From NCBI GenBank assembly GCA_016342755.1, contig JAEINS010000007.1, positions 1-64,000 on the forward strand: a stretch of 64,000 nucleotides of DNA. The letters are read 5' to 3'. This stretch comes from Melioribacteraceae bacterium. GTDB taxonomy: Bacteria; Bacteroidota; Ignavibacteria; Ignavibacteriales; Melioribacteraceae. Each line of letters begins with the position of its first letter. The stretch's first letter is position 1. The notes under the pieces were generated by a model that saw only the letters and a program-made list of their open reading frames with translations, made no database searches and was not told the origin of the DNA. Of the stretch, positions 1 through 14,730 are shown in pieces. A program made the translations under genes and the position numbers.

Positions 1-77
1 CTAAAGAAATGAAATCTAGATTTGAACTATTGGATACATATTAGTAATTTGGTGTCTAACTTTTTGGGGACAGATCA
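1..77. mobile_element. End of an IS3-like insertion sequence (terminal inverted repeat at 50-77)
   Basis: The minus-strand reading from 77 starts TGATCTGTCCCC and continues into AAAAAGTTAGACACC, which looks like the terminal inverted repeat of IS3-family elements (TG...CA ends, CCCCAA...GTTAGACA core). The repeat abuts hsdR coding sequence exactly, at 77/78. A short open frame at 3-44 ends in TAG just before the repeat, as the C-terminus of an IS3 transposase would, but 13 residues are too few to identify it. The rest of the element lies left of the window, so family and length are inferred from the end only. Confidence 0.65.
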
Positions 78-2105
78 GTTATGTCCACGCATTGGTTTGT
101 CTATGTACAATGTATTTAAGCAAGGAACATCAAATCCAGTCAACCACATATCACGAACAATTACAATTTTAAGTTCATCATCTGGATCACGCATCCTATC
201 TGCTAACGTTTTACGCTGATCTTTAGTAGTGTGATGTTTAGCCATTTCCGGTCCATCAGAAGAAACGGCAGTCATAACAACCTTTATTGCACCTTTAGAC
301 AAATCTGGATTGTGCCAGTCTGGTTTTAAGGTAACTATTTCCTTGTATAGATCGGCAGCAATTCTTCTTGACATAGAAACGATCATTGCCTTTCCACTAT
401 TGGCTATCTGACGGTTCTCGTAATGCTCAATCATATCTTTAGCGACTTGCTTAATACGATTCTCGCTACCGATTAGAGCTTCAAGCTGTGTCCATTTGGC
501 TTTAGCTTTCTGAGTTTCTGATAAGTCCTCACTAGCAAGATCATCATCTAATTCTTTAACGAGCTGCTTGCCTTCTTCACTAAGATTTATCTTAGCAAGT
601 CTACTTTCATAATATATTCTAACAGTAGCACCGTCATCAACGGCTTGAGCAATATCATATATATCAACATAATTACCGAAAACTGCCGGTGTATTAACAT
701 CTGAACTCTCAATAGGTGTTCCGGTAAACCCAAGATATGTAGCTTTAGGAAGTGCGTCTCTCATGTACTTTGCGAAACCATACACGATTTTCTTGCCAAC
801 CACATTACCGTTTTCGTCTTTATCATCTATAGTTTTTGCTTTGAATCCGTATTGTGTTCTATGAGCTTCATCAGCAATAACAACTATATTCTTTCTATCA
901 GACAATTCCTCATAAACATTACCGTCATCAGGCTGGAACTTTTGAATAGTTGTGAATACAACCCCACCGGATGCTACTTTTAATAGCTCTTTTAGATGCT
1001 GACGATCTTTGGCTTGTACTGGTTCTTGTCTAAGTAACTGTTTTGAATTACTGAATGTATCAAACAGTTGGTCATCAAGATCGTTTCTATCAGTTATTAC
1101 AAGAATTGTAGGATTATGTAAGGCGAGAACTGTTTTGCCGGTATAGAAGACCATAGACAGAGATTTGCCCGATCCTTGAGTATGCCAGACAACACCACCT
1201 TTTCTATCACCGTCAATAGAAGAAGCGCTGATAGTAGTTAATACTGCTTTATTTACAGCGTAGTACTGATGATAGGCAGCTAGTTTCTTAGTCTTTTCAA
1301 TGATGGTCATCTTTGTTTTAGAATCTTCTTTATTGCTTTCCTCAAATACTATGAAATGTCTTATCAGATCTAGAAGCGTTTTCTTATTTAGCATTCCATT
1401 AATTAGAGTTTCTAATTGTCCGATCAAATGAGGAGCTTCTGTTTTACCGTCTGATGTTTTCCAACTCATGAACCGTGTATAACCAGCAGAGAGTGAACCG
1501 GCTTTAGCTTCTAAGCCATCTGAGATTATAAGAAAACCGTTGTATGTGAAAAGTGTTGGTATTGCTTGTTTGTATGCATCTAGCTGCTTAAAAGCAGAAT
1601 GAATAGTTGCATTATCTACAGCAGGGTTTTTAAGCTCTATTACTATTAGAGGAATTCCATTAACAAATAGAATTACATCAGGTCGTTTATTTACATTGTT
1701 CTCAATAACCGTAAACTGATTAACTACAAGGAACTCGTTATTCTCTATATTATCAAAGTCAATCAACCAGACATAATCACCTCGATTATCACCATTGTTT
1801 TGGTAGGTAACTTTGATCCCTTCTGTAAGCATTCTATGGAACGTTTCATTATTTACGATTAGTTCAGGTGAGCTGAGACGCTGAATCTGTTTGAGTGCAT
1901 CATCTCTTGCATCTGTGGGTATTGTAGGGTTGATTCTATTGATGGCTGAACGTAATCTATCAATGAGTAGAACATCCTCAAATGAATCTCTTTCTGGATT
2001 CTCAGAATCTGGAGCAATGTCGTATCCACAAACGTAGTTGTAACCTTGCTTTTGCAGATACTCAATTGCTAGTAGTTCTATGTCGTTTTCGGTGATTTTA
2101 GTCAT
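75..2105 (-). pseudogene. hsdR: Type I restriction enzyme R subunit, interrupted by an IS
   Basis: HsdR is the ATP-dependent translocase and endonuclease of type I restriction enzymes. Visible in order: an N-terminal nuclease domain with PD...ELK (about residues 142-159), Walker A GSGKS (about 311-315), DEAH (about 412-415) and the FTGTP motif. The protein ends at residue 676, right after the DKPMRGHN stretch, where helicase motif VI and the C-terminal domain should follow; full HsdR is about 1000 residues. The stop TGA (75-77) is the first triplet of an IS end. I chose the ATG at 2103-2105, one base after the stop of the upstream NYN gene; a start at 2144 would overlap that gene. Restriction is probably lost unless an intact copy exists elsewhere. 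Confidence 0.9.
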
Positions 2106-2106
2106 A

Positions 2107-2754
2107 CTATAACCATTCTTCCGGTTTGGAGATTTTATAATCATTAGGTAAGGTTACAGTTACTGGGAATTGACTTTTTAATAAAGTTCCTCTTCCAATT
2201 ATTAAAGAGCCTTTAGCAGCGTTTTTAACACTATTGTTGTGTCTTGCAGGCGGAAAGACAACCATTACTCTTTTATCTGTAAAATTAGAATGTATGTTAT
2301 TTATAGGTGGAACAAGGTCACTATCACCAGAAATTAGCATTGCTGTATCGTAGGAATCTGACATAGCATCTGAGAGCATTTGAACGGCAATATTTACATC
2401 AGTCATTTTCTCTTCATTATTAGCCCATGAATGACCGCATCTTTTACATGTAATAGGTCTTGATTTATAGTGACCATAAATAATTTCTAAGGGTGTTGTT
2501 TCTAATACTGAGAGGTAATCTCTTTGTCTTTTTTCTTTTGGTGGATTATGAGCAACTCTGGATGTAAAGTATTTAACTGCTATAAGTTCTTGATGATCTT
2601 TTGTTAAATTGTCAACCAAGCTCCATATATTTAACCATTTAGCTTGTGGGAATTTATCTTTTATTCCAAAATAAAGATTGAAGCCATCTATATATGCAAT
2701 AACTCTTTCTTTTTTACCCAAAATTTTTCCTTGCGTTATATTTATAATTATCAT
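2107..2754 (-). CDS. NYN-domain (LabA/DUF88-like) putative RNase
   Basis: NYN domains are PIN-like metal-dependent nuclease folds, often acting on RNA. Visible acidic positions are YIDGFN near residue 22, TDVNIAVQML near 118 and the ISGDSDL motif near 140, the usual NYN set. A CKRC (about residue 103) may belong to a small zinc-binding insertion, though no second cysteine pair is seen. The stop lies one base before the hsdR start, so the two genes are probably co-transcribed and translationally coupled. No strong Shine-Dalgarno is seen. The role next to a restriction system is not known to me; defence or toxin-like RNA cleavage is an inference. Confidence 0.8.
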   Translation of the reverse strand: MIIINITQGKILGKKERVIAYIDGFNLYFGIKDKFPQAKWLNIWSLVDNLTKDHQELIAVKYFTSRVAHNPPKEKRQRDYLSVLETTPLEIIYGHYKSRPITCKRCGHSWANNEEKMTDVNIAVQMLSDAMSDSYDTAMLISGDSDLVPPINNIHSNFTDKRVMVVFPPARHNNSVKNAAKGSLIIGRGTLLKSQFPVTVTLPNDYKISKPEEWL

Positions 2755-2850: not shown

Positions 2851-4884
2851 TTATGTAGTTGGCAATCCTAATTTATCAAAAAATGCTTTGTTACGCTCTT
2901 TAGCCATATTTAATAATCTATCAAATGATATAACCTCAATATATGTTTTGTAAGGTAGGTTATACCCAAAATATCCCATTCCATCAGCTGTAACTTGGAG
3001 GCTTTTTGTTTCACATCTAGTTTTTAATGAGTCTGTTATGTCAGCTATCACATAACAAAATCCTGGTATAGTTTCAGAATTGGGAATCAGGCGACCAGAT
3101 GCAGTTGTAACTTTCCCATTTCTTACTCTTTTGAGGTAGCCTAATGCTTGTTCAATTGGGTCTTTTTCTTCCCCTTGTTTGGCGTCATTTCTCATTGGTC
3201 TTTTAATTTCTACTACTGTAATTGAAGCTAATGGAATTGAAGAGCTATCATTAACTAATAAAGGATTATCATAAATATTGAGAGACAATAAATCAGGTTC
3301 TTTTTTAGACTCAGAATCAGTAATCGGCATAGAATTAATTGTTTTATCGGAGGATAAAAAATTATGAAAAGCAAGTCTTTCATCAATTAACCATAAGTTT
3401 GAATCATCTGCAAATAATTCATTACTCGTTTTTTGCATCGGCATAATTAAATTATGAAGGACTTCTTCTTTGGAGTATTTGCCATCTTTTTTTATTTCAA
3501 TTGCCTTACCAAGTAGGTCCAAGATGACTTTTCTGTGAGTTACGTAGTTAGCTAGATCAGATCTCTTTTGATCGTTTACTTTTAATAAATAATCTTTTAT
3601 CCGCTCAGAATATTCCTCCTCATCTTCAGTTTCATTCGGCTTCATTAAATCATGTCCTTCAGAAAGAAGTTCAGTTTCAAATTCCATCAAATGTCTATGC
3701 AATTTAATATCTAAGTCTTTGTCACTAATATTAGGGTCAACGACTTTGTTATTCTCATCTATCCGGCCTAAAATTGGTCTATATCTAGGAGCTTTATTGT
3801 CAACAAAATCTGACATTCTCTGTAAGCCGATTTTTTTATTCTCTTCTAGATATTCATCTAAATATTCTGCTACATTTTCAATAATGCCTTTGCGTATATC
3901 ACAGAAAGTTATCTCTTGATCCTTAAAAAGTCCTTCCTCAGATTCTGATATATTAAAACCTATCCTTTCAGGATTAACTCGCTCTGTTAAAAAATCCGAT
4001 GTTACAAAACACATATAATTAAAACTATCATAGCCATTTTTCAATGAACCAAATAACCCGGGTATCTTCCCATTTAGAGATTCTTCTAGAACAACTCTAT
4101 TTGCAGCACTATAAATAATAGAATTTTTATTTCTAACCCTTGACTTGAGTTTAACATGAGTCAAATCAAATTTAACTGAATTTATTTCAAATGTTTTGCT
4201 GTCAGATGCATTTAACATAAAATCATCATAAAGATCGTTGAGTGTAAATGATTCGCCATCATCAAATATCGTTATATTTGGAGCACCTCCAATTCTTAAA
4301 AAATACCATAGACAGTGCTCCAAAAGCGACATAGCAATAGAATTTGATGTCTTCGGCATGTATTTATTATATTCTTTCTTTAAGTCTTGGAGTTCAACTA
4401 CCGTCTCTAATTTGTTGTTGTCGACATTGTTTTCTTTAAGCTTGTGTAGGTCATATTTGATGTTAAAATCAAAGCTTCTTTGCTGTGTTTCTGTTTTTAC
4501 TTTGTATGTACTGGAAACTGAAACTTTGTTGAATGACTTTAGCCATAGAAGTCTACCGACACCACGTCCTCCCAATACGATTTTATATTCTGAATCAAGT
4601 GTTTGAAAAGAGTTGAAGTTCTCATCGTTGAAACCAATTCCATTGTCAATTATTTCGAAGCCAATTATATCTGGATTAGAATTATCTTGAATGTCTAATT
4701 GATCTGATCTTAGGACTCTGACTCTGATGTAGCTTTTATCAATGTTGATATCTTTTTGTTTAATTATTCTTTCATCAATCGAATGAATTGAATTTACTAC
4801 TGCCTCGAACAGTGGAAATAACACATGTGTTTTAGGTAGGGTAGTGTTTCTCAAGCGTCCTTTCAGACTAGTATTCAAACTCAT
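2851..4884 (-). CDS. GHKL (Hsp90/MutL-type) ATPase with C-terminal PD-(D/E)XK-like domain
   Basis: The N-terminal GHKL ATP-binding fold shows the N motif EAVVNS (about residues 28-33), the G1 motif DNGIGF and the glycine loop GGRGVGR. The C-terminal third contains PDLLSLN, then VVEIKRP (about residues 557-563) and EQALGYLKR, which fits the D...ExK...Q pattern of PD-(D/E)XK nucleases. The middle is largely helical and unrecognised. The gene lies 12 bp downstream of hsdS on the same strand, inside a type I restriction locus. The architecture suggests an ATP-gated nuclease and thus a defence role; that is an inference, since neither activity nor partner is shown. I do not recognise it as a named defence family. 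Confidence 0.75.
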   Translation of the reverse strand: MSLNTSLKGRLRNTTLPKTHVLFPLFEAVVNSIHSIDERIIKQKDINIDKSYIRVRVLRSDQLDIQDNSNPDIIGFEIIDNGIGFNDENFNSFQTLDSEYKIVLGGRGVGRLLWLKSFNKVSVSSTYKVKTETQQRSFDFNIKYDLHKLKENNVDNNKLETVVELQDLKKEYNKYMPKTSNSIAMSLLEHCLWYFLRIGGAPNITIFDDGESFTLNDLYDDFMLNASDSKTFEINSVKFDLTHVKLKSRVRNKNSIIYSAANRVVLEESLNGKIPGLFGSLKNGYDSFNYMCFVTSDFLTERVNPERIGFNISESEEGLFKDQEITFCDIRKGIIENVAEYLDEYLEENKKIGLQRMSDFVDNKAPRYRPILGRIDENNKVVDPNISDKDLDIKLHRHLMEFETELLSEGHDLMKPNETEDEEEYSERIKDYLLKVNDQKRSDLANYVTHRKVILDLLGKAIEIKKDGKYSKEEVLHNLIMPMQKTSNELFADDSNLWLIDERLAFHNFLSSDKTINSMPITDSESKKEPDLLSLNIYDNPLLVNDSSSIPLASITVVEIKRPMRNDAKQGEEKDPIEQALGYLKRVRNGKVTTASGRLIPNSETIPGFCYVIADITDSLKTRCETKSLQVTADGMGYFGYNLPYKTYIEVISFDRLLNMAKERNKAFFDKLGLPTT

Positions 4885-4896
4885 AGCTTCCTCATT

Positions 4897-6096
4897 TTAT
4901 ATTTTAACCCTCACTTCACCGCTTATTAATTTAGGCAACAATGTATCTCGCAATTTTCCAAGGTTTATAATTTGCCGAAGATTAGTTGCTTTTTTTTCAT
5001 ATAAATGGTTAGCATTATTAGCAAACTCTATAATTTTATATTTAGGTGGAAGATAGAATTCAAATGATGGGACAGCGGTCTTGTTTAAATGTAATACAGT
5101 TGATCCATTACTCAATCCAAGACAATGGAACTTGAAATATCTAGTTTTCATTAAGTGATATAAAAACTGAGTATACAACCATTCATATTTGGGAACTACT
5201 TTTACTAAATCCATTGAAATCAATAATTGGTCATATTTAGATAATCCGAATACTATTTCAGGGTTTCCAATTATATCAGCATCTTGGGTGATATCAGTAT
5301 GAGCTACAATTAGACTGCCATTTTTTACAATATGTTGATCTTTATATTTTCCTGTATATTCTTTGAACCCATCAAGTCGGAAGCCTCCACCTCGGCTGAA
5401 ATTTTTAAGTGTTACCAGAGCCTGATTTGATTCATTCAAGTCATCGCTTTTGTAGGAAACTCCATTATAAATTTCTACAAAGTCACCAAGAGTAACATAC
5501 TCCCAACTATCATCCGCTTCCTCAATAAACCACTGCCTAAAGAGTGTTTCTGCCATTGATTCAAGTGTTTTGTTTTGGCGGTGGAGTAGGTCTATTTTGT
5601 CGTCTAAACTGCTTAGGACTGAGGCTATGGCTTTTTGTTCTGGGAGGGGAGGAAGATTTACAATCAATTGTTTTACGATAGATCCAGAAATTTCTTCAAA
5701 TGTAGTTCCAGTCCCACTGCTTTTCAAATAATCTATATTCTTTTTAATCCAATAAAGCATAAAAATATTACTAGCTTGAGTTTCATCTATTATTAAACTC
5801 TTGAAGCCTTGATTGGTTGTGATTGGATTAAGGGCGATTGCAGCATAGCCAATTGGAGCCCTAGAGCTAAGTAAAATTGAGCCCTTAGGCAGTAACTTAG
5901 CAGAAGAATTTTCTAAACCTTTCTGTGTTATAGACCTATCACCCTTTGAAATATAATTGCCTTTGAAATTTGTTAAATCACGAGGCGTCAACCAAGCAAT
6001 ATCTCCATTCCAGTAACTTGAGGTTTTAGTATTTGGAGTACCACCCCCAATTACATCAGCTATATCAGCAATTTGTATTTTACGCCACTCACTCAT
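4897..6096 (-). CDS. hsdS: Type I restriction-modification specificity subunit
   Basis: HsdS recognises the bipartite DNA target for both HsdM and HsdR. Two target-recognition domains are visible: the first begins WRKIQIADIADVIGGGTP and runs into WLTPRDL, the second begins near VTLGDFVEIYNGVSY. Each is followed by a conserved helical spacer; the first contains LPPLPEQKAIASVLSSLDDK and FRQWF. The length (399 residues) is normal. The ATG overlaps the end of the upstream nuclease-like gene by 4 bp (ATGA), so the two are translationally coupled. Specificity cannot be read from sequence. Confidence 0.95.
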   Translation of the reverse strand: MSEWRKIQIADIADVIGGGTPNTKTSSYWNGDIAWLTPRDLTNFKGNYISKGDRSITQKGLENSSAKLLPKGSILLSSRAPIGYAAIALNPITTNQGFKSLIIDETQASNIFMLYWIKKNIDYLKSSGTGTTFEEISGSIVKQLIVNLPPLPEQKAIASVLSSLDDKIDLLHRQNKTLESMAETLFRQWFIEEADDSWEYVTLGDFVEIYNGVSYKSDDLNESNQALVTLKNFSRGGGFRLDGFKEYTGKYKDQHIVKNGSLIVAHTDITQDADIIGNPEIVFGLSKYDQLLISMDLVKVVPKYEWLYTQFLYHLMKTRYFKFHCLGLSNGSTVLHLNKTAVPSFEFYLPPKYKIIEFANNANHLYEKKATNLRQIINLGKLRDTLLPKLISGEVRVKI

Positions 6097-6551
6097 TCAG
6101 AAATTTCTCCATTAGCAATCTTGGTGAAGCGCTCCTTGTCTTTACATAAAACAATAGAAAGTCCAAGTTCGTAATTATATTTTCCAGAATTATTTGTGAA
6201 ATCTTTAAGTTTACATAAATCCTTATCAGTATCATCTCCCCAATAGGTTTTGAATTCCATAATTAACAAGTTGTCTTTATTTGTTCCACGCTTATGCAAA
6301 ATGATATCTGGGTATGTTCCTTGAGGGAAATTATCTGTTCGTTTTGGGTCTGAATGATTTTTGTTGTATTCAAAATCTAAATTATACTCACTAAATTCTG
6401 ATTTCTTGATGATTTCATTAAAATAAATTCCAAACCAAAATACTATGCTTCGTTCGTGAACTTTGTTCTCAATAAGATAATACTGCCTTTCGTATACCAT
6501 CTGAATCGCTTGCTGGACGAGCTCAATCAGTAATTGTATTCTATAACTCAT
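6093..6551 (-). CDS. Small PD-(D/E)XK-type nuclease-like protein
   Basis: The central part reads GTYPDIILHKRG and then LLIMEFKTYWG, giving a PD...EFK pattern typical of the PD-(D/E)XK nuclease core; the N-terminus is helical. I chose the ATG at 6549-6551 rather than the TTG one codon upstream. It ends in a 4-bp overlap with hsdS. A 28-codon ORF overlaps its start. It may be an accessory nuclease or a regulator of the restriction system. No named family is recognised; function is inferred only from the motif and its place between fic and hsdS. Confidence 0.6.
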   Translation of the reverse strand: MSYRIQLLIELVQQAIQMVYERQYYLIENKVHERSIVFWFGIYFNEIIKKSEFSEYNLDFEYNKNHSDPKRTDNFPQGTYPDIILHKRGTNKDNLLIMEFKTYWGDDTDKDLCKLKDFTNNSGKYNYELGLSIVLCKDKERFTKIANGEISE

Positions 6552-6627
6552 CAATCATCACCTTATCAAGGTTTTCAAGAATCAAGGTGTTCAATCGTTG
6601 TCCCTTTATTATTTGTATTTTGCTCAT
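6541..6627 (-). CDS. 28-residue ORF upstream of and overlapping the small nuclease gene
   Basis: The ORF starts at the ATG at 6625-6627, encodes MSKIQIIKGQRLNTLILENL and 8 further residues, and stops with TAG at 6541-6543, overlapping the start of the next gene. It could be a leader peptide that couples translation or a remnant of a longer gene. No family is recognised, and a chance ORF is possible. Confidence 0.3.
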   Translation of the reverse strand: MSKIQIIKGQRLNTLILENLDKVMIDEL

Positions 6628-6639
6628 AGTATTTATTTT

Positions 6640-7773
6640 CTAGTTAAACATTCTTAGATATTTATTAAACGCAAAAACTCTATTTCTTTTATTGCCGGTT
6701 ATTTCCATTAGAATATTCTCTTTAACAAAAGCGTTAACAAGGTTAGTTGCCGCTCTTGGTGTAAGATTTGTGATTGTCTGGACATCTTTAATACTTACGA
6801 TGGGTTTTGTAAACAAGTGGTTAAGCAGATTAAAACCTTGCTTGCTTCTGTTGCCAAGTTTAACAATGTATTTGGTTTCAAGTTCTGCTTTTAATTCAAC
6901 AATTTCTTTTAAGCTGTTAACCGCTTTTTCAGATGTTGCAATAATTCCGGTAAGGAAGTATTTAATCCATTGCGCTAAATCGTTTCTGGTTCTCACAAAT
7001 GTGAGGTTATCGTAATACAAAGTTTTATTCTTTTCAAAAAAGTCAGAAAGATATAGCAGCGGTTTTTCCATAATGCCGTTTGCTACAAAATATAGCGTTA
7101 TTAAAAGCCTTCCTATTCTGCCATTGCCATCTAAAAATGGGTGTATGGTTTCAAACTGATAATGAGCAATCGCAATTTTAACAAGATGAGGTATGCTTAA
7201 TTCTTCATTGTTTATAAATCGTTCAAAATCAGAAAGGAGATCCGGTAATTCTTCGTGAGCTGGCGGTATAAAAACAGCATCTTTTAATGTAGTTCCACCA
7301 ATCCAGTTTTGAGACTTGCGAAATTCACCAGGTGTTTTGTTATCGCCTCTTCCTTCCGAAAGTAAAATTCTGTGAGTTTCTTTAATTAGTCTGTTTGAAA
7401 TAGGGAGTGTTTTGAGAGACTCGATAGCTGAGTTTATAGCATTAACGTAATTATTTACTTCTAACCAGTCGTTTCGTTTTTCGGGGATTACATCCTTTTC
7501 ATCAGCCAAAGCCTCTTCAATGTTGGTTTTGGTTCCCTCAATCTTGCTTGAAACAACGGCTTCTTTAATAACGTGCATACGAATGAACATATCGGTATCG
7601 GGAACAAACTTAGAAAATGAGTTTAATTCACCAAGTTTTAGCGAAGCTGTTTCAAGGAGTTCGTTAATAATTTTATCTTCCCAAACAAAAGAATGGTTTA
7701 TTTTTCCCGGCACAAAGTATTCGTATTGATACCCGCTTTTATACGAACCAGCTTTGAAGTCCTTAATATTCAT
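6640..7773 (-). CDS. Fic-family AMP-transferase with self-inhibitory motif (class II)
   Basis: Fic proteins usually transfer AMP from ATP to a hydroxyl of a target protein. The catalytic motif HPFLDGNGRIGR is intact at about residues 211-222. SSKIEG at 75-80 matches the inhibitory motif [S/T]xxxE[G/N] lying N-terminal to the Fic core, as in class II Fic proteins. A C-terminal winged-helix-like domain (about 310-377, with SIKDVQTITNLTPRAATNLV) may bind DNA. Length (377) is usual for this class. It is inserted between hsdM and hsdS on the same strand; stand-alone Fic genes are common passengers in such loci. The target is unknown. Confidence 0.9.
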   Translation of the reverse strand: MNIKDFKAGSYKSGYQYEYFVPGKINHSFVWEDKIINELLETASLKLGELNSFSKFVPDTDMFIRMHVIKEAVVSSKIEGTKTNIEEALADEKDVIPEKRNDWLEVNNYVNAINSAIESLKTLPISNRLIKETHRILLSEGRGDNKTPGEFRKSQNWIGGTTLKDAVFIPPAHEELPDLLSDFERFINNEELSIPHLVKIAIAHYQFETIHPFLDGNGRIGRLLITLYFVANGIMEKPLLYLSDFFEKNKTLYYDNLTFVRTRNDLAQWIKYFLTGIIATSEKAVNSLKEIVELKAELETKYIVKLGNRSKQGFNLLNHLFTKPIVSIKDVQTITNLTPRAATNLVNAFVKENILMEITGNKRNRVFAFNKYLRMFN

Positions 7774-7874: not shown

Positions 7875-9410
7875 CTACAGCTTAATTTTACTTAAATTCA
7901 CTTTAATCAACTTATTTAGCCTACTTTCTTCCACTAATTGTTCTTCAAACTCAGCCTTAAGTTTTAAGAAACGTTCGCTAAAGTCAAAATCATCCTCTTC
8001 GTCTGGCAAACCAACATAACGTCCGGGAGTAAGAACATAATCAAGCTCTTTAACTCTTTCTAACGATGTTGAATTGCAAAATCCTTTGATGTCCTCATAC
8101 TTGTCTGCCGAGGCAGAATCTTTGTTAGCAGTCCAGTTATGGTAAGTTGATGCAATTTGCTCAATGTCTTCAGAGGTGAATTCTTTTGTCCGGCGATTTA
8201 TGAGATACCCCAAATTTCGGGCATCAATAAATAAGATTTCGTCTTTACGCTTGCGGTTCCTAGCAAGGAACCATAAACTAGCTGGTATTTGAGTGTTAAG
8301 AAATAATTTAGCCGGTAAGTTTACAATACAGTCAACTAGATTTGCTTCAATTAGAGCTTTGCGGATATCCCCCTCGCCGGATGTTTTGGAAGTTAGCGCA
8401 CCTTTTGAGAGCACAAATCCAGCTTTGCCATTAGGATTTAGATGGTAGAGGAAGTGTTGAATCCAAGCATAATTAGCGTTTCCGGTGGGCGGAACCCCTA
8501 ACGACCATCTTCCATCAGTTCTTAACTGATCACCACTCCAGTCACTGTCATTAAAAGGTGGATTGGCTATTACATAATCGGCTTTCAAATCCTTATGAGC
8601 ATTGTTTAAGAATGAGCCTTCGCTATTCCACTTAACTTGGGAGCTATCAATACCACGAATGGCAAGGTTCATTTTTGCAAGCCGCCAAGTAGTTTGGTTG
8701 CTCTCTTGTCCATAGATAGATATGTCGTTAATCTTACCTTGATGACCTTCGACAAACTTCTCAGACTGTACGAACATTCCGCCCGAACCACAGCAAGGAT
8801 CGAGTACACGTCCTTTATATGGCTGAAGCATCTCAACTAGTAATTCAACTACTGACCGTGGAGTGTAGAACTGACCGCCTTTTTTACCTTCAGCAAGTGC
8901 AAACTCACCAAGGAAATATTCAAATACATGACCGAGAATATCTGCGCTTCTTGCTTTAGCATCACCGAGAGCAATGTTTCCGATTAGATCAATGAGACCA
9001 CCCAAACTTGTAGGATCAAGATTAGCGCGAGCAAACACCTTTGGTAATACATCTTTTAGCGATGGGTTGTCCCTTTCAATAGCGTCCATAGCAGAATCTA
9101 CATCCTTGCCAATTTCTGGAAGCTTAGCTCTAGAAAGCAAGTAGCTCCACCTTGCAGATGGAGGTACAAAGAATACATTCTCGGCTTTGTACTCGTCTCT
9201 ATCTTCCGGATCAGCGCCAACATATTCGCCTTCACCAGCTATTAGTTTATCGTGTAGTTCTTCAAATGAATCGGAGATGTATTTAAGGAACATCAATCCC
9301 ATTACTATATGTTTATATTCGGCAGCGTCAATGTTCTTGCGCAGTTTATCGGCTGATTTCCATAATTGTTTTTCGATGGGTTCAGATTTAGAGTTGTTCT
9401 TCTTTGCCAT
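7875..9410 (-). CDS. hsdM: Type I restriction-modification DNA methyltransferase subunit
   Basis: HsdM is the N6-adenine methyltransferase subunit. The SAM-binding motif [10 protein letters not shown] (about 204-213) and the catalytic motif NPPF (283-286) are intact, and the N-terminal HsdM helical domain ([20 protein letters not shown]) is present. The length of 511 residues is normal, so methylation with HsdS should be possible even though hsdR is broken. It is the first gene of the restriction locus; about 1.1 kb without genes lies upstream. The 101-bp gap to fic suggests fic may also have its own promoter. Confidence 0.95.
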
Positions 9411-10523: not shown

Positions 10524-12314
10524 TTAAGCTGCTTCCTCGTTAATTATATGGCCGACTATAATATCATGTTTGTTCTGGTCAGTCTCAGATTCAACCTCAG
10601 GGCTTTTGATCCCAAGTAGTCGATGAACTTCTGATAATTTAGTTACATCAGAGTTACTGAAGGAATCTAATCTGATATCAGTAATCCAATTGACTTTTTT
10701 AACTGCGTTCTCCTCTAGGTTTTTAATACTCGGAATCTTATAATTGTTGCAATCATAAAGACTGTTCAATTCCTCAGTAAACACCGGTTTGGTTTTGGGT
10801 TGGTCACCATAGTTTTCTGTGCACCATGACTTATAAGCTAGATATAAAGAGCTAAGGGTTGAAGCGTATGAGGGCGTTTCATCATTGCCCAATACACACT
10901 TTTCTTTAACAAATACTGCAACAGAGTCAGATGCTTCTTTAAATTCTGTGATGTTTTTCAATACATCACCAGGCGATTCAAAATATATTCCACCATCATG
11001 TAAAACTATCTCTTTGTATTTGTTTAATACTAAATTTAGAATACCAGGTATCTCGGTAATTAATTTCCTCGATAATTGTGTATCTGGTCTTTTTATAAAT
11101 GATTTATTAAAAGATATAATATCGAGCCTTCTAATAATAGCATTGTCAACAACTTTGAACTTAGGATAACTGTTGGCAGATATTATTAGGCGAGCCATAT
11201 TCTTAAATTCAATAGGTTTTTCCTTAATTTGGCGACAAGAAATCTTATCATCACCAGTTAAAGCCTTGAACATATAGGCGTCTTTTTCTAAGCCAGAAAC
11301 TTCGTTTGAGAAGTTAGCATACTTATTGACCAGCTGAAAAGCAGAATAATGCTGTCCATCCGCAAGGTTGCTGAATTCTTGGTTTGAAATATTATCATCA
11401 CCAATCAATTCACGCCAGACATTCATAATTACTGATTTACCATTACCACCTTTGCCGACAAGTAAAAGTGCTTTTTGGAATTCATATGTTGGGATCATGG
11501 TGTACATCATCCATTTTAATAGATGATCAATAACTTCTTTATTTCCCTCCAGCATCTCATTTATTTTTTCGATAAATAGGGGGCATTCAGCCTCTGGGTC
11601 ATATTCTACCGGAAATTGTACAGTAGTTTTATAATTCGGCGTATGTGATTCTAAACTGTTTGTTTCTAAGTTATATAGTCCATTGGCAAAGTTTAGTATA
11701 GATTTATCTGGATTCATCTGTTCTTCAAAGAAGATATCAGATTGCTTCATTAACCTTTTTGTTAAGGTTTCTATTTTGTTATTGTTGATTTGATCTGATG
11801 GGAAGAAGTTGATTAGAAATTCTTCCATTAAAGCATGGATTTTTTTATCATTAACAATTTGCCATACGCCATTTATATACTCATAAAAATTCAATGTCGG
11901 ATTATGAAAAATAATTCTGTCCTTATAATACTGAGTAAATAAATCAATTGTGAAAGTCTCGTTGTATTTTGGGGGTATAAAGGTTGGGAAAAATAATGGT
12001 GATTCTGAGTTTATAGATTTAATCTTACCACAAAGATTCGCTCGTCCGCAAATTTCATGACAGAGTGTATTGCAATCGGCAGGACTTTCTTCCTCTACCT
12101 CCCAAATCTGATTGAATGATTTGAACATATCTTCTGAATTCAACACTTTGTTCATTAGTCCTATTTTTACATCTTGTTCAAAGTGAATAGCTATTTTTAT
12201 TAGTTTTTCTAGATCAACTTCATTTAGTTTAGTCAGGTGATCTTTGTTCATGATTTTTTCAATAAAATTACAGTGATTTTGGATATTGTTAAACTTGTCT
12301 AAATTATGCTGCAT
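10524..12314 (-). CDS. D5/P4-type SF3 helicase of a mobile element (phage/plasmid primase family)
   Basis: These proteins open replication origins of phages, plasmids and integrative elements. The D5_N-type region (about 130-270) leads into an SF3 helicase core with Walker A GKGGNGKS (287-294) and a LIISANSYPKF stretch ending in NAIIRRLDII. A recognisable primase catalytic domain is not seen in the N-terminal 110 residues. That region instead carries four closely spaced cysteines (81, 85, 89, 95), possibly metal-binding. The ATG overlaps the end of the upstream recombinase by 11 bp, so the two are coupled. A role in replicating the island after excision is inferred. Confidence 0.85.
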   Translation of the reverse strand: MQHNLDKFNNIQNHCNFIEKIMNKDHLTKLNEVDLEKLIKIAIHFEQDVKIGLMNKVLNSEDMFKSFNQIWEVEEESPADCNTLCHEICGRANLCGKIKSINSESPLFFPTFIPPKYNETFTIDLFTQYYKDRIIFHNPTLNFYEYINGVWQIVNDKKIHALMEEFLINFFPSDQINNNKIETLTKRLMKQSDIFFEEQMNPDKSILNFANGLYNLETNSLESHTPNYKTTVQFPVEYDPEAECPLFIEKINEMLEGNKEVIDHLLKWMMYTMIPTYEFQKALLLVGKGGNGKSVIMNVWRELIGDDNISNQEFSNLADGQHYSAFQLVNKYANFSNEVSGLEKDAYMFKALTGDDKISCRQIKEKPIEFKNMARLIISANSYPKFKVVDNAIIRRLDIISFNKSFIKRPDTQLSRKLITEIPGILNLVLNKYKEIVLHDGGIYFESPGDVLKNITEFKEASDSVAVFVKEKCVLGNDETPSYASTLSSLYLAYKSWCTENYGDQPKTKPVFTEELNSLYDCNNYKIPSIKNLEENAVKKVNWITDIRLDSFSNSDVTKLSEVHRLLGIKSPEVESETDQNKHDIIVGHIINEEAA

Positions 12315-13269
12315 TGTTTAATACCTCTATGTTTTTAATTAATGTTTCTATTTTTAAATGTGAATATCTTTCAGTTACTGTTATACTGCTATGTCCAAGC
12401 AGTTCTTTTACTATATATAAGTCCACACCAGCTTTTACTAGGTTACTTGCAAATGAATGTCTAAGACTGTGAAATTTCACCTTTTCCTCTAAGCCTACAG
12501 CTCTACTCGCTTTTTTAAATTGTCGGGATACGTAATCCGCATTAAATGCGATTGTTCTAGATTTCCCGAATACATAGCTATTTAGATTAACTATTTCTCC
12601 ATTTGAGGCTGGATCTATTCCTTGAAGTTTCTCTGATAGCTTTTCGCAAATTGGTATTTGACGCTGCTTTCTGCTCTTGGTAGAAAACATTTCATCGCCA
12701 ACAGTAATAATGTTATTTACTAAATCGATATTATTCCATCGTAAATTAATAATCTCACTTAGTCTGCAGCCAGTATAAAAACTAGTGAAAACTATATCTT
12801 TAATTTGCTGCTGCTTGATCGAATTCATAATTAAAGACAGTTCAGATGCATCAATTGTTTGTGGATGTTCTTCTTGTTGCTTTCTCAATTTTATTTTTAC
12901 AAATGGATTGCTTGAAATATAATCCCAATCTAAAGCCTTGTTAAAAGCTGCTTTTAGATTTCGATAATATACTCTGTATCCTTTAGGAGCATTGATTTTA
13001 AGATTAATTATGAAATCTTCAATCATCTTTACAGTCAGTTCATTGATGTCAATGTCATCACTGAAGTATTTTCTTAAAGCATTCATTGATAGTTTTACTG
13101 ACTTATAATATTTCTGTGAACATTCACCTTCGATATAGTTCTCGTATTCGGTACAAAACGATTCTAACGTTTTCTTGGTTCTTTCTTTTTCGACCTTTAC
13201 TGAATTAAGTAAATTCATCAGGCTATGGATTTGATCCATATTAAAATTATTAATATTAGAACTATCCAT
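12304..13269 (-). CDS. Tyrosine recombinase (phage-type integrase), copy A
   Basis: Catalytic residues of the tyrosine recombinase family are visible: R169 (TGCRLSE), H267 and R270 (HSLRHSF), H293 (LLGHSS) and the nucleophile Y302 (TERYSH), with a SAM-like N-terminal core-binding domain. It lacks the arm-binding domain of copy B but shares the LKAAFNKA.DW.YI..NPF stretch with it, so the two are paralogues. The start overlaps the upstream 96-codon ORF by 8 bp and its end overlaps the helicase, forming a tight operon. It may act with copy B in integration or excision, or handle a nested element. Confidence 0.9.
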   Translation of the reverse strand: MDSSNINNFNMDQIHSLMNLLNSVKVEKERTKKTLESFCTEYENYIEGECSQKYYKSVKLSMNALRKYFSDDIDINELTVKMIEDFIINLKINAPKGYRVYYRNLKAAFNKALDWDYISSNPFVKIKLRKQQEEHPQTIDASELSLIMNSIKQQQIKDIVFTSFYTGCRLSEIINLRWNNIDLVNNIITVGDEMFSTKSRKQRQIPICEKLSEKLQGIDPASNGEIVNLNSYVFGKSRTIAFNADYVSRQFKKASRAVGLEEKVKFHSLRHSFASNLVKAGVDLYIVKELLGHSSITVTERYSHLKIETLIKNIEVLNNAA

Positions 13270-13728: not shown

Positions 13729-14730
13729 CTATAATTTAAGTATTGCATCATGCAATGATTCGACATTGAGATGAGAATATATTTGAGTTGTCGAAATATC
13801 AGTGTGACCAAGAAGTTCTTTAACAACATATAGGCTGGTTCCGTTTCTTACCAGATTACTAGCGAAACTATGACGTAGGCTATGGAAATGGATATCTTCT
13901 GACATTCCAGCTGCTCTAACAGCATCTTTAAAACGATGACTAATTGTGTCTTGGTGGAACTTGTATCCTTGTTCATTAGGAAATACATAGTCAGATTTTT
14001 TTACTTTATGTAGAATGGCGAAAGTTTTAATTATTGTTTTACTAATAGGAATTTGGCGATCTTTCTTACTCTTAGTTTTAAATTCAGTAGAATTCTTTAC
14101 CGTCAATATATTATTCTTAAGATCAATGCTGTCCCATTTCAAATTTAATAGTTCACTCTGCCTCATACCAGTATAATAAGCTACATGATAAAGATTGCCT
14201 AGAACAGCATTCTCAACTTGTTCAAGGATTTTTTGTAGCTCACTATGATTAATTACACTCGGAAATTTCTTTATAAGTTTGGGAGGTTTGACTTTAGTAA
14301 ATGGATTAAACTCAATGTATTCCCAATCGACAGCTTTATTAAATGCTGCTTTTAATGTTCGGTGATAAAGGTGTGCTGCCGTTTCAGCTCTTCTATAAGA
14401 CATCGAAACAAAACCATCAACATCTCTAATAGTTATAAGATTGAGATTGGGATCACCAATAAACTCAGTGAACATCTTAAATGAAAGTTTGATACTCTTT
14501 ATATATTTTGCTGAGTAACTTATTTCAGCTCGTTCCTCATACTCAGCTCTAAACTGTGATAAGCTAATTCCTTGAGGTTTTAGCCGATCTTTAATTTGAT
14601 AACGCAATTCTGAAACAAACTTGGTTGCCTCAGCCTTAGTTTTCTTTTTTGTTGATACTCTTTTGGTCTTTTGTTGAACTTCATCAAAGTATTCAACATA
14701 GTAGATACCTTTTCTAATAAATATAAACAT
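13729..14730 (-). CDS. Tyrosine recombinase (island integrase), copy B
   Basis: This is the recombinase next to the tRNA-Thr att site and so the likely integrase of the island. Catalytic residues are R190 (TGMRQSE), H283 and R286 (HSLRHSF), H309 (LLGHTD) and Y318 (TQIYSH). The N-terminal 45 residues (FIFIRKGIYYVEYFDEVQQK) look like an arm-type DNA-binding domain, then the SAM-like core-binding domain follows. The ATG at 14728-14730 is about 110 bp from the att fragment. The segment between holds a 14-bp palindrome that may be an operator. Confidence 0.93.
   Translation of the reverse strand: MFIFIRKGIYYVEYFDEVQQKTKRVSTKKKTKAEATKFVSELRYQIKDRLKPQGISLSQFRAEYEERAEISYSAKYIKSIKLSFKMFTEFIGDPNLNLITIRDVDGFVSMSYRRAETAAHLYHRTLKAAFNKAVDWEYIEFNPFTKVKPPKLIKKFPSVINHSELQKILEQVENAVLGNLYHVAYYTGMRQSELLNLKWDSIDLKNNILTVKNSTEFKTKSKKDRQIPISKTIIKTFAILHKVKKSDYVFPNEQGYKFHQDTISHRFKDAVRAAGMSEDIHFHSLRHSFASNLVRNGTSLYVVKELLGHTDISTTQIYSHLNVESLHDAILKL

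What the first reader, a model, noticed from the sequence alone, without database searches (positions are those of the whole stretch)
2851..4884. GHKL ATPase joined to a PD-(D/E)XK-like domain
The N-terminal GHKL motifs (EAVVNS, DNGIGF, GGRGVGR) and a C-terminal VVEIKRP/EQALGY pattern in one 677-residue chain suggest an ATP-dependent nuclease switch. I know of Hsp90-like ATPases in defence islands but do not recognise this exact arrangement as a named system.
Basis: partly seen in the sequence, partly recalled or inferred. Interest (0 to 1): 0.65.

Follow-up and report, generated by a model that had tools for sequence, protein, structure and literature searches.

The report
ATPase-gated Shedu nuclease inside restriction operon
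This is a bacterial anti-virus protein of a known kind, an ATP-powered clamp fused to a DNA-cutting enzyme, and here and in several other bacteria its gene sits inside the gene cluster of another DNA-cutting defence system.

Summary
Confirmed: window 2851-4884 (minus strand) encodes one intact 677-residue protein with GHKL ATPase motifs and a C-terminal D-ExK site. The N-half models as an Hsp90/MORC-like GHKL-S5 module (Z up to 18.6). The C-half models as a PD-(D/E)XK nuclease whose four top-ranked solved structures are Shedu (Z 8.7-9.7; the next is 8.6). The design is not new: it was described in 2008 as paraMORC3 (PMC2292703), and VcSduA, with the same layout, was shown in 2025 to restrict phages through both active sites, E27 and K557 (PMC12137116). 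Here they are E27 and K561. What I did not find in print is the setting: the gene lies inside a type I restriction-modification operon (hsdM-fic-x-hsdS-GHKL-NYN-hsdR). I scored 12 of 94 loci as embedded in type I operons, in several phyla and beside divergent HsdR proteins; six share a 4-base overlap with hsdS. Here hsdR is cut by an IS-like repeat. Verdict: new member of a known kind in a modestly new setting; no activity was tested.

The parts
2851..4884 (-). GHKL-Shedu (paraMORC3-type) protein, 677 aa
   Evidence: Single open reading frame; relatives over nearly the full length
4285..4884 (-). GHKL (Bergerat-fold) ATPase domain, about residues 1-200
   Evidence: AlphaFold2 model; Hsp90 and MORC matches, Z 16.6-18.6 over model residues 1-346 as a whole; boundary set by eye
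3910..4284 (-). S5-like transducer domain, about residues 201-325, with invariant R263 and R307
   Evidence: boundary set by eye from the model
3505..3909 (-). Long helical linker or clamp region, about residues 326-460
   Evidence: Secondary structure of the models; the clamp role is inferred from the published VcSduA model
2854..3504 (-). C-terminal PD-(D/E)XK nuclease, best matched by Shedu, about residues 461-677
   Evidence: Model of residues 380-677, pLDDT 89; four top-ranked entries are Shedu; profile match to SduA C-termini 92.4%
4804..4806 (-). E27, predicted ATPase catalytic glutamate (same number as the essential E27 of VcSduA)
   Evidence: Invariant; checked; VcSduA E27A from PMC12137116
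4552..4572 (-). GGRGVGR, GHKL glycine-rich lid, residues 105-111
3466..3468 (-). E473, proposed first acidic residue of the E-D-ExK set
   Evidence: Invariant in 65 sequences
3292..3294 (-). D531 of the nuclease active site
   Evidence: Invariant; at least 90%
3202..3210 (-). E559-x-K561 of the nuclease active site
   Evidence: Invariant
4897..6096 (-). hsdS, ending 12 bases before the GHKL-Shedu gene
   Evidence: Methylase_S E 3.2e-41; spacing
7875..9410 (-). hsdM
   Evidence: N6_Mtase E 3.8e-110
75..2144 (-). hsdR, cut just before helicase motif VI by a repeated IS-like end at the contig edge
   Evidence: TIGR00348 hsdR E 4.4e-167; alignment; repeat
2107..2754 (-). NYN-domain gene between the GHKL-Shedu gene and hsdR
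   Evidence: NYN E 2e-14; PADLOC HEC-09 E 1.7e-84
6093..6554 (-). Small ORF resembling PD-Lambda-3_A, overlapping the start of hsdS
   Evidence: PADLOC E 6.2e-15
6640..7773 (-). Fic-domain protein (SoFic-like) downstream of hsdM
   Evidence: PADLOC SoFic E 3.6e-118; Fic E 2.3e-19

Best explanation
The gene encodes a single-protein anti-phage nuclease of the GHKL-Shedu design (paraMORC3 of Iyer 2008; like VcSduA, Shedu type I-D). It is carried as a guest between hsdS and hsdR of a type I restriction-modification operon, probably on an integrated mobile element. Proposed mechanism: ATP binding closes the N-terminal GHKL domains into a dimer (E27 as catalytic glutamate; N31, D80 and the glycine-rich lid holding the nucleotide). 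The S5 and helical middle parts then clamp phage DNA or a phage-altered DNA structure. This positions or releases the C-terminal PD-(D/E)XK nuclease (E473, D531, E559, K561), which cuts that DNA while the host survives. Shown here: the domains, the intact catalytic residues, the fold matches, the operon setting and its recurrence. Shown by others for VcSduA: anti-phage activity needing both active sites, with growth curves that fit direct restriction. Inferred: that this protein is active, that it dimerises as a clamp, that ATP gates cutting, and that it works independently of HsdMSR. The trigger that tells phage from host DNA is unknown.
For: GHKL and E-D-ExK residues conserved in members down to 26% identity. 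N-half fold Hsp90/MORC, Z up to 18.6. C-half fold: E. coli SduA 8ps5 and 8ps4 Z 9.7, B. cereus Shedu 8ti9 Z 9.2 and 8ti8 Z 8.7 lead the list. Profile-profile: 92.4%, P 5e-7 to SduA C-termini; controls HsdM, HsdS, Fic, NYN, the small ORF and reversed Shedu at 0.4% or less. A weak direct BLASTP match (24% over 155 columns, E 0.003) links the C-half to L138, a protein with Pfam SduA_C. VcSduA E27A and K557A lose protection (PMC12137116); the two residues are 534 apart here and 530 there. Patchy, mobile spread: 58 of 72,556 plasmid records, 1 of 50,697 phage records with the gene beside the integrase, 46 viral-contig loci, full-length copies in 6 of 296 phylum genomes. Scored as embedded in type I operons in 12 of 94 loci.
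Against: No assay was possible. The VcSduA sequence itself was not obtainable, so kinship with it rests on architecture, residue numbering and fold. Pfam SduA_C does not match this protein, matches 1 of 21 members at E 0.15, and is not among the 25 of 36 families shown for the 65 C-termini. Foldseek alone gave no hit under E 0.001 for the C-half (best 0.16). The C-half profile also resembles the HsdR N-terminal nuclease (87.9%), so sequence does not single out Shedu. In one search only the two E. coli SduA entries lead the next enzyme by over one Z unit (9.7 against 8.6); 8ti9 and 8ti8 are tied with it. The dimer was not modelled.
Confidence: 0.74

Rival explanations
1. It is a functional subunit of the type I system: the GHKL-Shedu protein works with HsdM/HsdS, borrowing their site recognition or remodelling the stalled HsdR complex, and adds a second nuclease.
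For: 4-base overlaps with hsdS in 6 loci and with hsdR in 3 loci; divergent HsdR proteins (21-68% identical to the window's) sit beside it, while the GHKL-Shedu proteins of the same loci are 52-70% identical.
Against: 82 of 94 loci were not scored as embedded (some contigs are too short to show it), including phage and plasmid copies away from hsd genes. VcSduA works alone in E. coli (PMC12137116). HsdR keeps its own D-ExK site in all 10 embedded loci where an HsdR is in view, so no replacement is needed. Other guests sit in type I operons: TgvAB, DarTG2, and here GmrSD, Schlafen-type and FRG genes.
Confidence: 0.12
2. It is a guardian of the RM system (PrrC-like): silent while the type I enzyme is intact, firing, possibly killing the cell, when a phage anti-restriction protein blocks it.
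For: PrrC is embedded in a type IC locus and works this way (review passage); the operon also carries Fic and NYN genes, domains that I recall from toxins and effectors.
Against: VcSduA protects at all tested multiplicities, which its authors read as direct restriction; 82 of 94 relatives were not scored as embedded.
Confidence: 0.08
3. It is a DNA-repair or chromosome-structure enzyme with no defence role.
For: The N-half fold is shared with gyrase and topoisomerase IV ATPase domains, Hsp90 and MORC.
Against: Patchy distribution: no full-length copy in the 15 other genomes of its family that were searched. Plasmid and phage carriage, RM operon setting, Shedu-like nuclease.
Confidence: 0.03

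Closest known systems
VcSduA (Vibrio cholerae GHKL-Shedu, Shedu type I-D; Adams et al. 2025, PMC12137116)
   Same: N-terminal GHKL ATPase plus C-terminal PD-(D/E)XK nuclease of Shedu kind in one chain of similar layout: ATPase glutamate at 27 in both, nuclease lysine at 561 here and 557 there.
   Different: VcSduA stands next to GrwAB on a genomic island; this gene is inside a type I RM operon. Direct sequence identity could not be measured.
paraMORC3 (Iyer, Abhiman and Aravind 2008, PMC2292703)
   Same: GHKL + S5 + C-terminal restriction-endonuclease-fold domain with E-D-ExK; lateral spread; prevalent in proteobacteria and Bacteroidetes.
   Different: That paper describes SF2-helicase RM partners or standalone genes; in the two parts of four that I read I saw no type I hsdMSR embedding.
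Classical Shedu (SduA, Pfam PF14082; PDB 8ps5, 8ps4, 8ti8, 8ti9)
   Same: C-terminal nuclease fold, D-ExK-Q pattern and the closing strand-helix are in register.
   Different: The N-terminal part is a GHKL-S5 ATPase; Pfam SduA_C does not reach this sequence.
TgvAB and DarTG2, embedded in type I RM operons (PMC11411939, PMC12255303)
   Same: Second defence modules lodged in a type I operon, DarTG2 between hsdS and hsdR (passages).
   Different: Different guests: a GmrSD-like pair and a toxin-antitoxin pair, not a GHKL nuclease.
MORC ATPases
   Same: GHKL-S5 module; MORC3 5ix2 Z 17.5, MORC2 9cdj Z 17.1.
   Different: The MORC S5 motif GhXhhpXXRhl, as written in PMC2292703, is found in 0 of 88 members of at least 600 residues; no true MORC was run as a positive control.

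Membership tests
paraMORC3 (Iyer 2008) | N-terminal GHKL domain with the ATP-binding motifs plus an S5 domain | tested here: met
   Motif residues invariant; Hsp90/MORC fold over residues 1-346
paraMORC3 (Iyer 2008) | C-terminal RE-fold domain with E-D-ExK | tested here: met
   E473, D531, E559, K561; PD-(D/E)XK neighbours
paraMORC3 (Iyer 2008) | Lacks the MORC-specific S5 motif | tested here: met
   0 of 88 members of at least 600 residues carry it, the window protein included; pattern search without a positive control
paraMORC3 (Iyer 2008) | Sequence clustering with the published paraMORC3 members | not tested
   The published member sequences were not compared
Shedu type I-D / VcSduA | C-terminal nuclease of the Shedu (DUF4263, SduA_C) family | tested here: inconclusive
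   For: Shedu entries rank 1-4 in the structural alignment, SduA profile match 92.4%, weak BLASTP to L138. Against: no Pfam SduA_C match for this protein, 1 of 21 members at E 0.15; HsdR_N profile nearly as close (87.9%)
Shedu type I-D / VcSduA | GHKL ATPase as the N-terminal domain, with motif I glutamate | tested here: met
   E27 in FEAVVNS
Shedu type I-D / VcSduA | Anti-phage activity needing ATPase and nuclease | not testable with these tools
   Needs plaque assays
Shedu type I-D / VcSduA | Direct homology to VcSduA | not tested
MORC ATPases | S5 motif GhXhhpXXRhl | tested here: not met
Guest of type I RM operons | Lies between hsd genes on the same strand with operon-like spacing | tested here: met
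   hsdS ends 12 bases upstream; NYN gene then hsdR downstream; all on the minus strand

The most novel reading that the evidence does not exclude
GHKL-Shedu is not just a passenger. In part of its close clade it has become a conserved fourth component of type I systems (hsdM-hsdS-GHKL-hsdR), translationally coupled to hsdS and hsdR. It would use the type I complex either for target choice or as its trigger, for example cutting DNA when the HsdR motor stalls or is inhibited, and would have been recruited more than once by divergent type I lineages.
Probability: 0.18. Interest if true: 0.62.

Novelty: new member of a known kind. Interest (0 to 1): 0.36.

Why it matters
It adds members from several phyla, plasmids and viral contigs to the GHKL-Shedu design that has been tested as VcSduA, and shows a recurring home for it in type I restriction-modification operons. 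That makes a simple question testable: does an embedded ATP-gated nuclease act alone, or does it read the state of the host restriction enzyme? It also adds one more guest to the published proposal that the hsdS-hsdR junction is a site for defence genes (PMC12255303).

Tried and rejected
Wholly new system: rejected, because paraMORC3 and VcSduA describe the architecture.

MORC membership: rejected on the S5 motif (no positive control run).

Replacement of a dead HsdR nuclease: rejected. HsdR keeps D-ExK in the 10 of 12 embedded loci where an HsdR is in view: window, L002, L005, L008, L009, L010, L012, L024, L028, L029 (read by pattern and by eye; L006 and L013 show no HsdR).

Pfam, PADLOC and NCBIfam on the single protein: weak HATPase hits, PADLOC PDC-M28C E 0.0035, and no NCBIfam hit at E 0.1. 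Member scans: SduA_C in 1 of 21 (E 0.15), HSDR_N in 6 of 65 (best 6.6e-4) and PDDEXK_9 in 2 of 65; NCBIfam gave scattered weak ATPase and chance hits; PADLOC TmtA (Tiamat) in 1 of 21 (E 0.0026), not followed up.

Sequence searches of solved structures found nothing useful. Foldseek on the C-half found nothing better than E 0.16. L138, which begins with a GHKL-like sequence (by eye) and ends in SduA_C, in a genome of the window's family, is a shorter design (587 aa; ExK lysine 507, motif glutamate 29) with only a weak match to the window protein. No E. coli DNA match for the L032 copy in 20,395 records.

The rest of hsdR was sought in the own genome with a related HsdR and with PF11867; only the known piece on C40 and a separate HsdR-like gene on C25 were found.

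In-print check of a GHKL nuclease embedded in a type I operon: searches over open-licence PubMed Central papers; I saw none in the listings and in the passages I read. The main Shedu survey (Gu et al. 2025) is not held, supplements could not be read, and I read passages, named sections or parts only, so absence from print is not established.

Full report
What is there. The 2,034-base frame at 2851-4884 is on the minus strand and encodes 677 residues without interruption. The protein has GHKL motif residues E27 and N31, D80-x-G82-x-G84, G105/G108/G110-R111 and T161, and nuclease residues E473, P530-D531, E559-x-K561 and Q579 (positions checked; the roles follow from recalled knowledge of these families and from the two papers below). 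In alignment A2 (the window protein, 5 of 25 genome loci, 14 of 58 plasmid records and 1 phage record; 26-66% identity to the window) E27, N31, D80, D531, E559 and K561 are invariant. In alignment A3 (the window and 64 of 69 mappable loci of 71 tried; four near-copies and one shortened copy left out) E473, E559 and K561 are invariant and D531 and Q579 at least 90% conserved.

Fold. A full-length AlphaFold2 model from alignment A1 (25 sequences; L021 and L026 left out as broken or partial) has mean pLDDT 76 and is poor in the nuclease part. Its first 346 residues align with closed Hsp90 (8eob, Z 18.6, rmsd 4.2, 281 residues), MORC3 (Z 17.5) and MORC2 (Z 17.1), so the N-half is a GHKL-S5 ATPase module. 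Residues 380-677 modelled alone from A3 reach pLDDT 89. Foldseek found no PDB match better than E 0.16. The realignment of Foldseek's top 1000 candidates puts four Shedu entries first: 8ps5 and 8ps4 (E. coli SduA, Z 9.7, 175-176 residues), 8ti9 (B. cereus Shedu nuclease domain, Z 9.2, 155 residues) and 8ti8 (Z 8.7, rmsd 7.8). R.BspD6I (8.6), EndoMS (7.8), FokI (7.2) and McrBC (6.7) follow, all enzymes with PD-(D/E)XK domains as I recall them. Only the two E. coli SduA rows stand over one Z unit above the first non-Shedu row. A profile comparison of the 65 C-termini with 17 SduA C-termini (L029 and 16 of the 17 PF14082 loci) gives 92.4% probability, P 5e-7, with D531, ExK, Q579 and the closing strand-helix in register. 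The HsdR N-terminal nuclease (12 sequences) gives 87.9%. Reversed Shedu, HsdM (11 sequences), HsdS (8), and single-sequence Fic, NYN and small-ORF controls give 0.4% or less. So PD-(D/E)XK is secure, and Shedu is the best but not the only match.

Family and spread. Relatives were found in 25 genome-contig loci, 58 of 72,556 plasmid records (51 covering at least 80% of the query), 1 of 50,697 phage records, where the gene neighbours the integrase, and 46 viral-contig loci. Of 296 genomes of the window's phylum, 59 have some match at E 0.001, but only 6 have a full-length copy; the others match in the ATPase region alone, and none of the 15 other genomes of the window's family has a full-length copy. 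This is the patchy pattern of a mobile defence gene. Sampling is uneven: several viral contigs are near-copies, viral contigs may hold host flanks, and short contigs hide neighbours.

Known name. Iyer et al. 2008 (PMC2292703; I read the first two of four parts) described paraMORC3: GHKL, S5 and a C-terminal restriction-endonuclease-fold domain with E-D-ExK, laterally mobile, RM-linked or standalone. Adams et al. 2025 (PMC12137116; section 12 and passages) showed that VcSduA, with the same layout, protects against Drexlerviridae in E. coli and against phage X29 in V. cholerae. E27A and K557A each abolish activity, protection is robust at all tested multiplicities (read by the authors as direct restriction), and the authors call it Shedu type I-D and say that proteins of this organisation were earlier annotated as paraMORC3. 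The window protein has its motif glutamate at 27 and its nuclease lysine at 561; one viral-contig copy (L032) has 27 and 557. I could not obtain VcSduA itself for a direct alignment.

Setting in the window. All on the minus strand, in transcription order: hsdM 7875-9410, Fic 6640-7773, a small PD-Lambda-3_A-like ORF 6093-6554, hsdS 4897-6096, GHKL-Shedu 2851-4884, NYN (HEC-09) 2107-2754, hsdR 75-2144. Upstream lie two tyrosine-recombinase-like ORFs (12304-13269 and 13729-14730, named by me from sequence, not scanned) and a D5-type primase (10524-12314), suggesting an integrated element. The hsdR frame ends just before helicase motif VI, compared with homologues. The stop lies in an IS-like end (so called from recall; no transposase was sought) that occurs four times exactly and once with three mismatches in the genome, at or near contig edges. 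The rest of hsdR was not found. Restriction by this type I enzyme is therefore probably lost here, while hsdM and hsdS look intact; this is inference.

Recurrence of the embedding. I examined the hsd neighbourhood of 95 loci, of which 94 held a detectable GHKL-Shedu gene (L123 did not). By reading I scored 12 of 94 as lying in a same-strand run with hsd genes: window, L002, L005, L006, L008, L009, L010, L012, L013, L024, L028, L029. In six of these (window, L005, L008, L009, L010, L012) hsdS is seen upstream and hsdR downstream. In L006 and L013 only hsdS is in view, and in L002 and L024 only hsdR, the contigs being short. In L028 and L029 the gene comes last, after hsdR-AAA-hsdM-hsdS. In L005 and L029 one gene separates it from hsdS. 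Six overlap hsdS by four bases (L006, L008, L009, L010, L012, L013) and three overlap hsdR by four bases (L009, L012, L024). Because contiguity was part of my scoring, tight spacing is description, not an independent test; 13 of the 82 other loci also have a same-strand neighbour within 30 bases. Hsd genes lie nearby but are not in such a run in L016, L019, L023, L026, L033, L079 and L098, and weaker HsdM matches occur in L035, L089, L096, L102 and L103. Extra guests differ: GmrSD in L010, a Schlafen-type gene in L008 and L005, an FRG gene in L005, an annotated Shedu nuclease and an AAA gene in L029.

On a quick-method tree of 93 sequences (rows under 320 residues dropped) the embedded state needs 6 changes (shuffled mean 11.5; 0 of 500 shuffles as low), and starred branches force at least 3; these may be gains or losses, and some rows scored 'not' have no visible neighbours. 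HsdR identity to the window's is 68% (L002), 36-37% (L008, L009, L010, L012), 31% (L024) and 21% (L028, L029), while GHKL-Shedu identity in the same loci is 52-70%. The two proteins may evolve at different rates, but the simplest reading is that the gene has entered divergent type I systems more than once. HsdR keeps its own D-ExK site in the 10 embedded loci where it is in view.

Interpretation. Published type I operons carry other embedded defence modules: TgvAB (PMC11411939, passages), DarTG2 between hsdS and hsdR, a place that paper calls a potential recombination hotspot (PMC12255303, passages), and PrrC (review PMC12707154, passages). The simplest reading is that GHKL-Shedu is one more independent guest, acting as an ATP-gated clamp nuclease. 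The coupling to hsdS and hsdR leaves room for a functional link, which I put at about one in five. I did not find the GHKL-Shedu embedding in print in the searches listed under Tried and rejected, but the main Shedu survey (Gu et al. 2025) was not readable.

Verdict. Observation confirmed; interpretation supported; architecture already named and tested in a protein of the same design; the setting is a modest addition.

Noticed in passing
window 1-77: hsdR is cut by an IS-like end sequence at the contig edge; four exact copies and one with three mismatches are in the genome.
   Followed up: partly
window 6640-7773: SoFic-like Fic protein sits between hsdM and the small ORF before hsdS.
   Followed up: no
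window 6093-6554: 153-residue ORF resembling PADLOC PD-Lambda-3_A (E 6.2e-15), overlapping the start of hsdS.
   Followed up: no
window 2107-2754: NYN-domain gene matching PADLOC HEC-09 strongly (E 1.7e-84), overlapping the start of hsdR.
   Followed up: no
L010:9995-17444: A type I operon with both a GHKL-Shedu and a GmrSD type IV enzyme gene between hsdS and hsdR.
   Followed up: partly
L029:8625-12019: Annotated Shedu nuclease gene directly followed by and overlapping a GHKL-Shedu gene, after hsdS on a Vibrio fluvialis plasmid.
   Followed up: no
L138: A 587-residue protein in a genome of the window's family begins with a GHKL-like sequence (by eye) and matches Pfam SduA_C over profile positions 3-65; apparently a second, different GHKL-Shedu design.
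   Followed up: partly
L031 (phage vB_RanS_PJN03), 2485-4509: A family member (28% identity) is annotated as N-acetylmuramoyl-L-alanine amidase, apparently a wrong name.
   Followed up: no
G270 (L077, L078, L080): One genome carries three family loci, one of them in two pieces.
   Followed up: no
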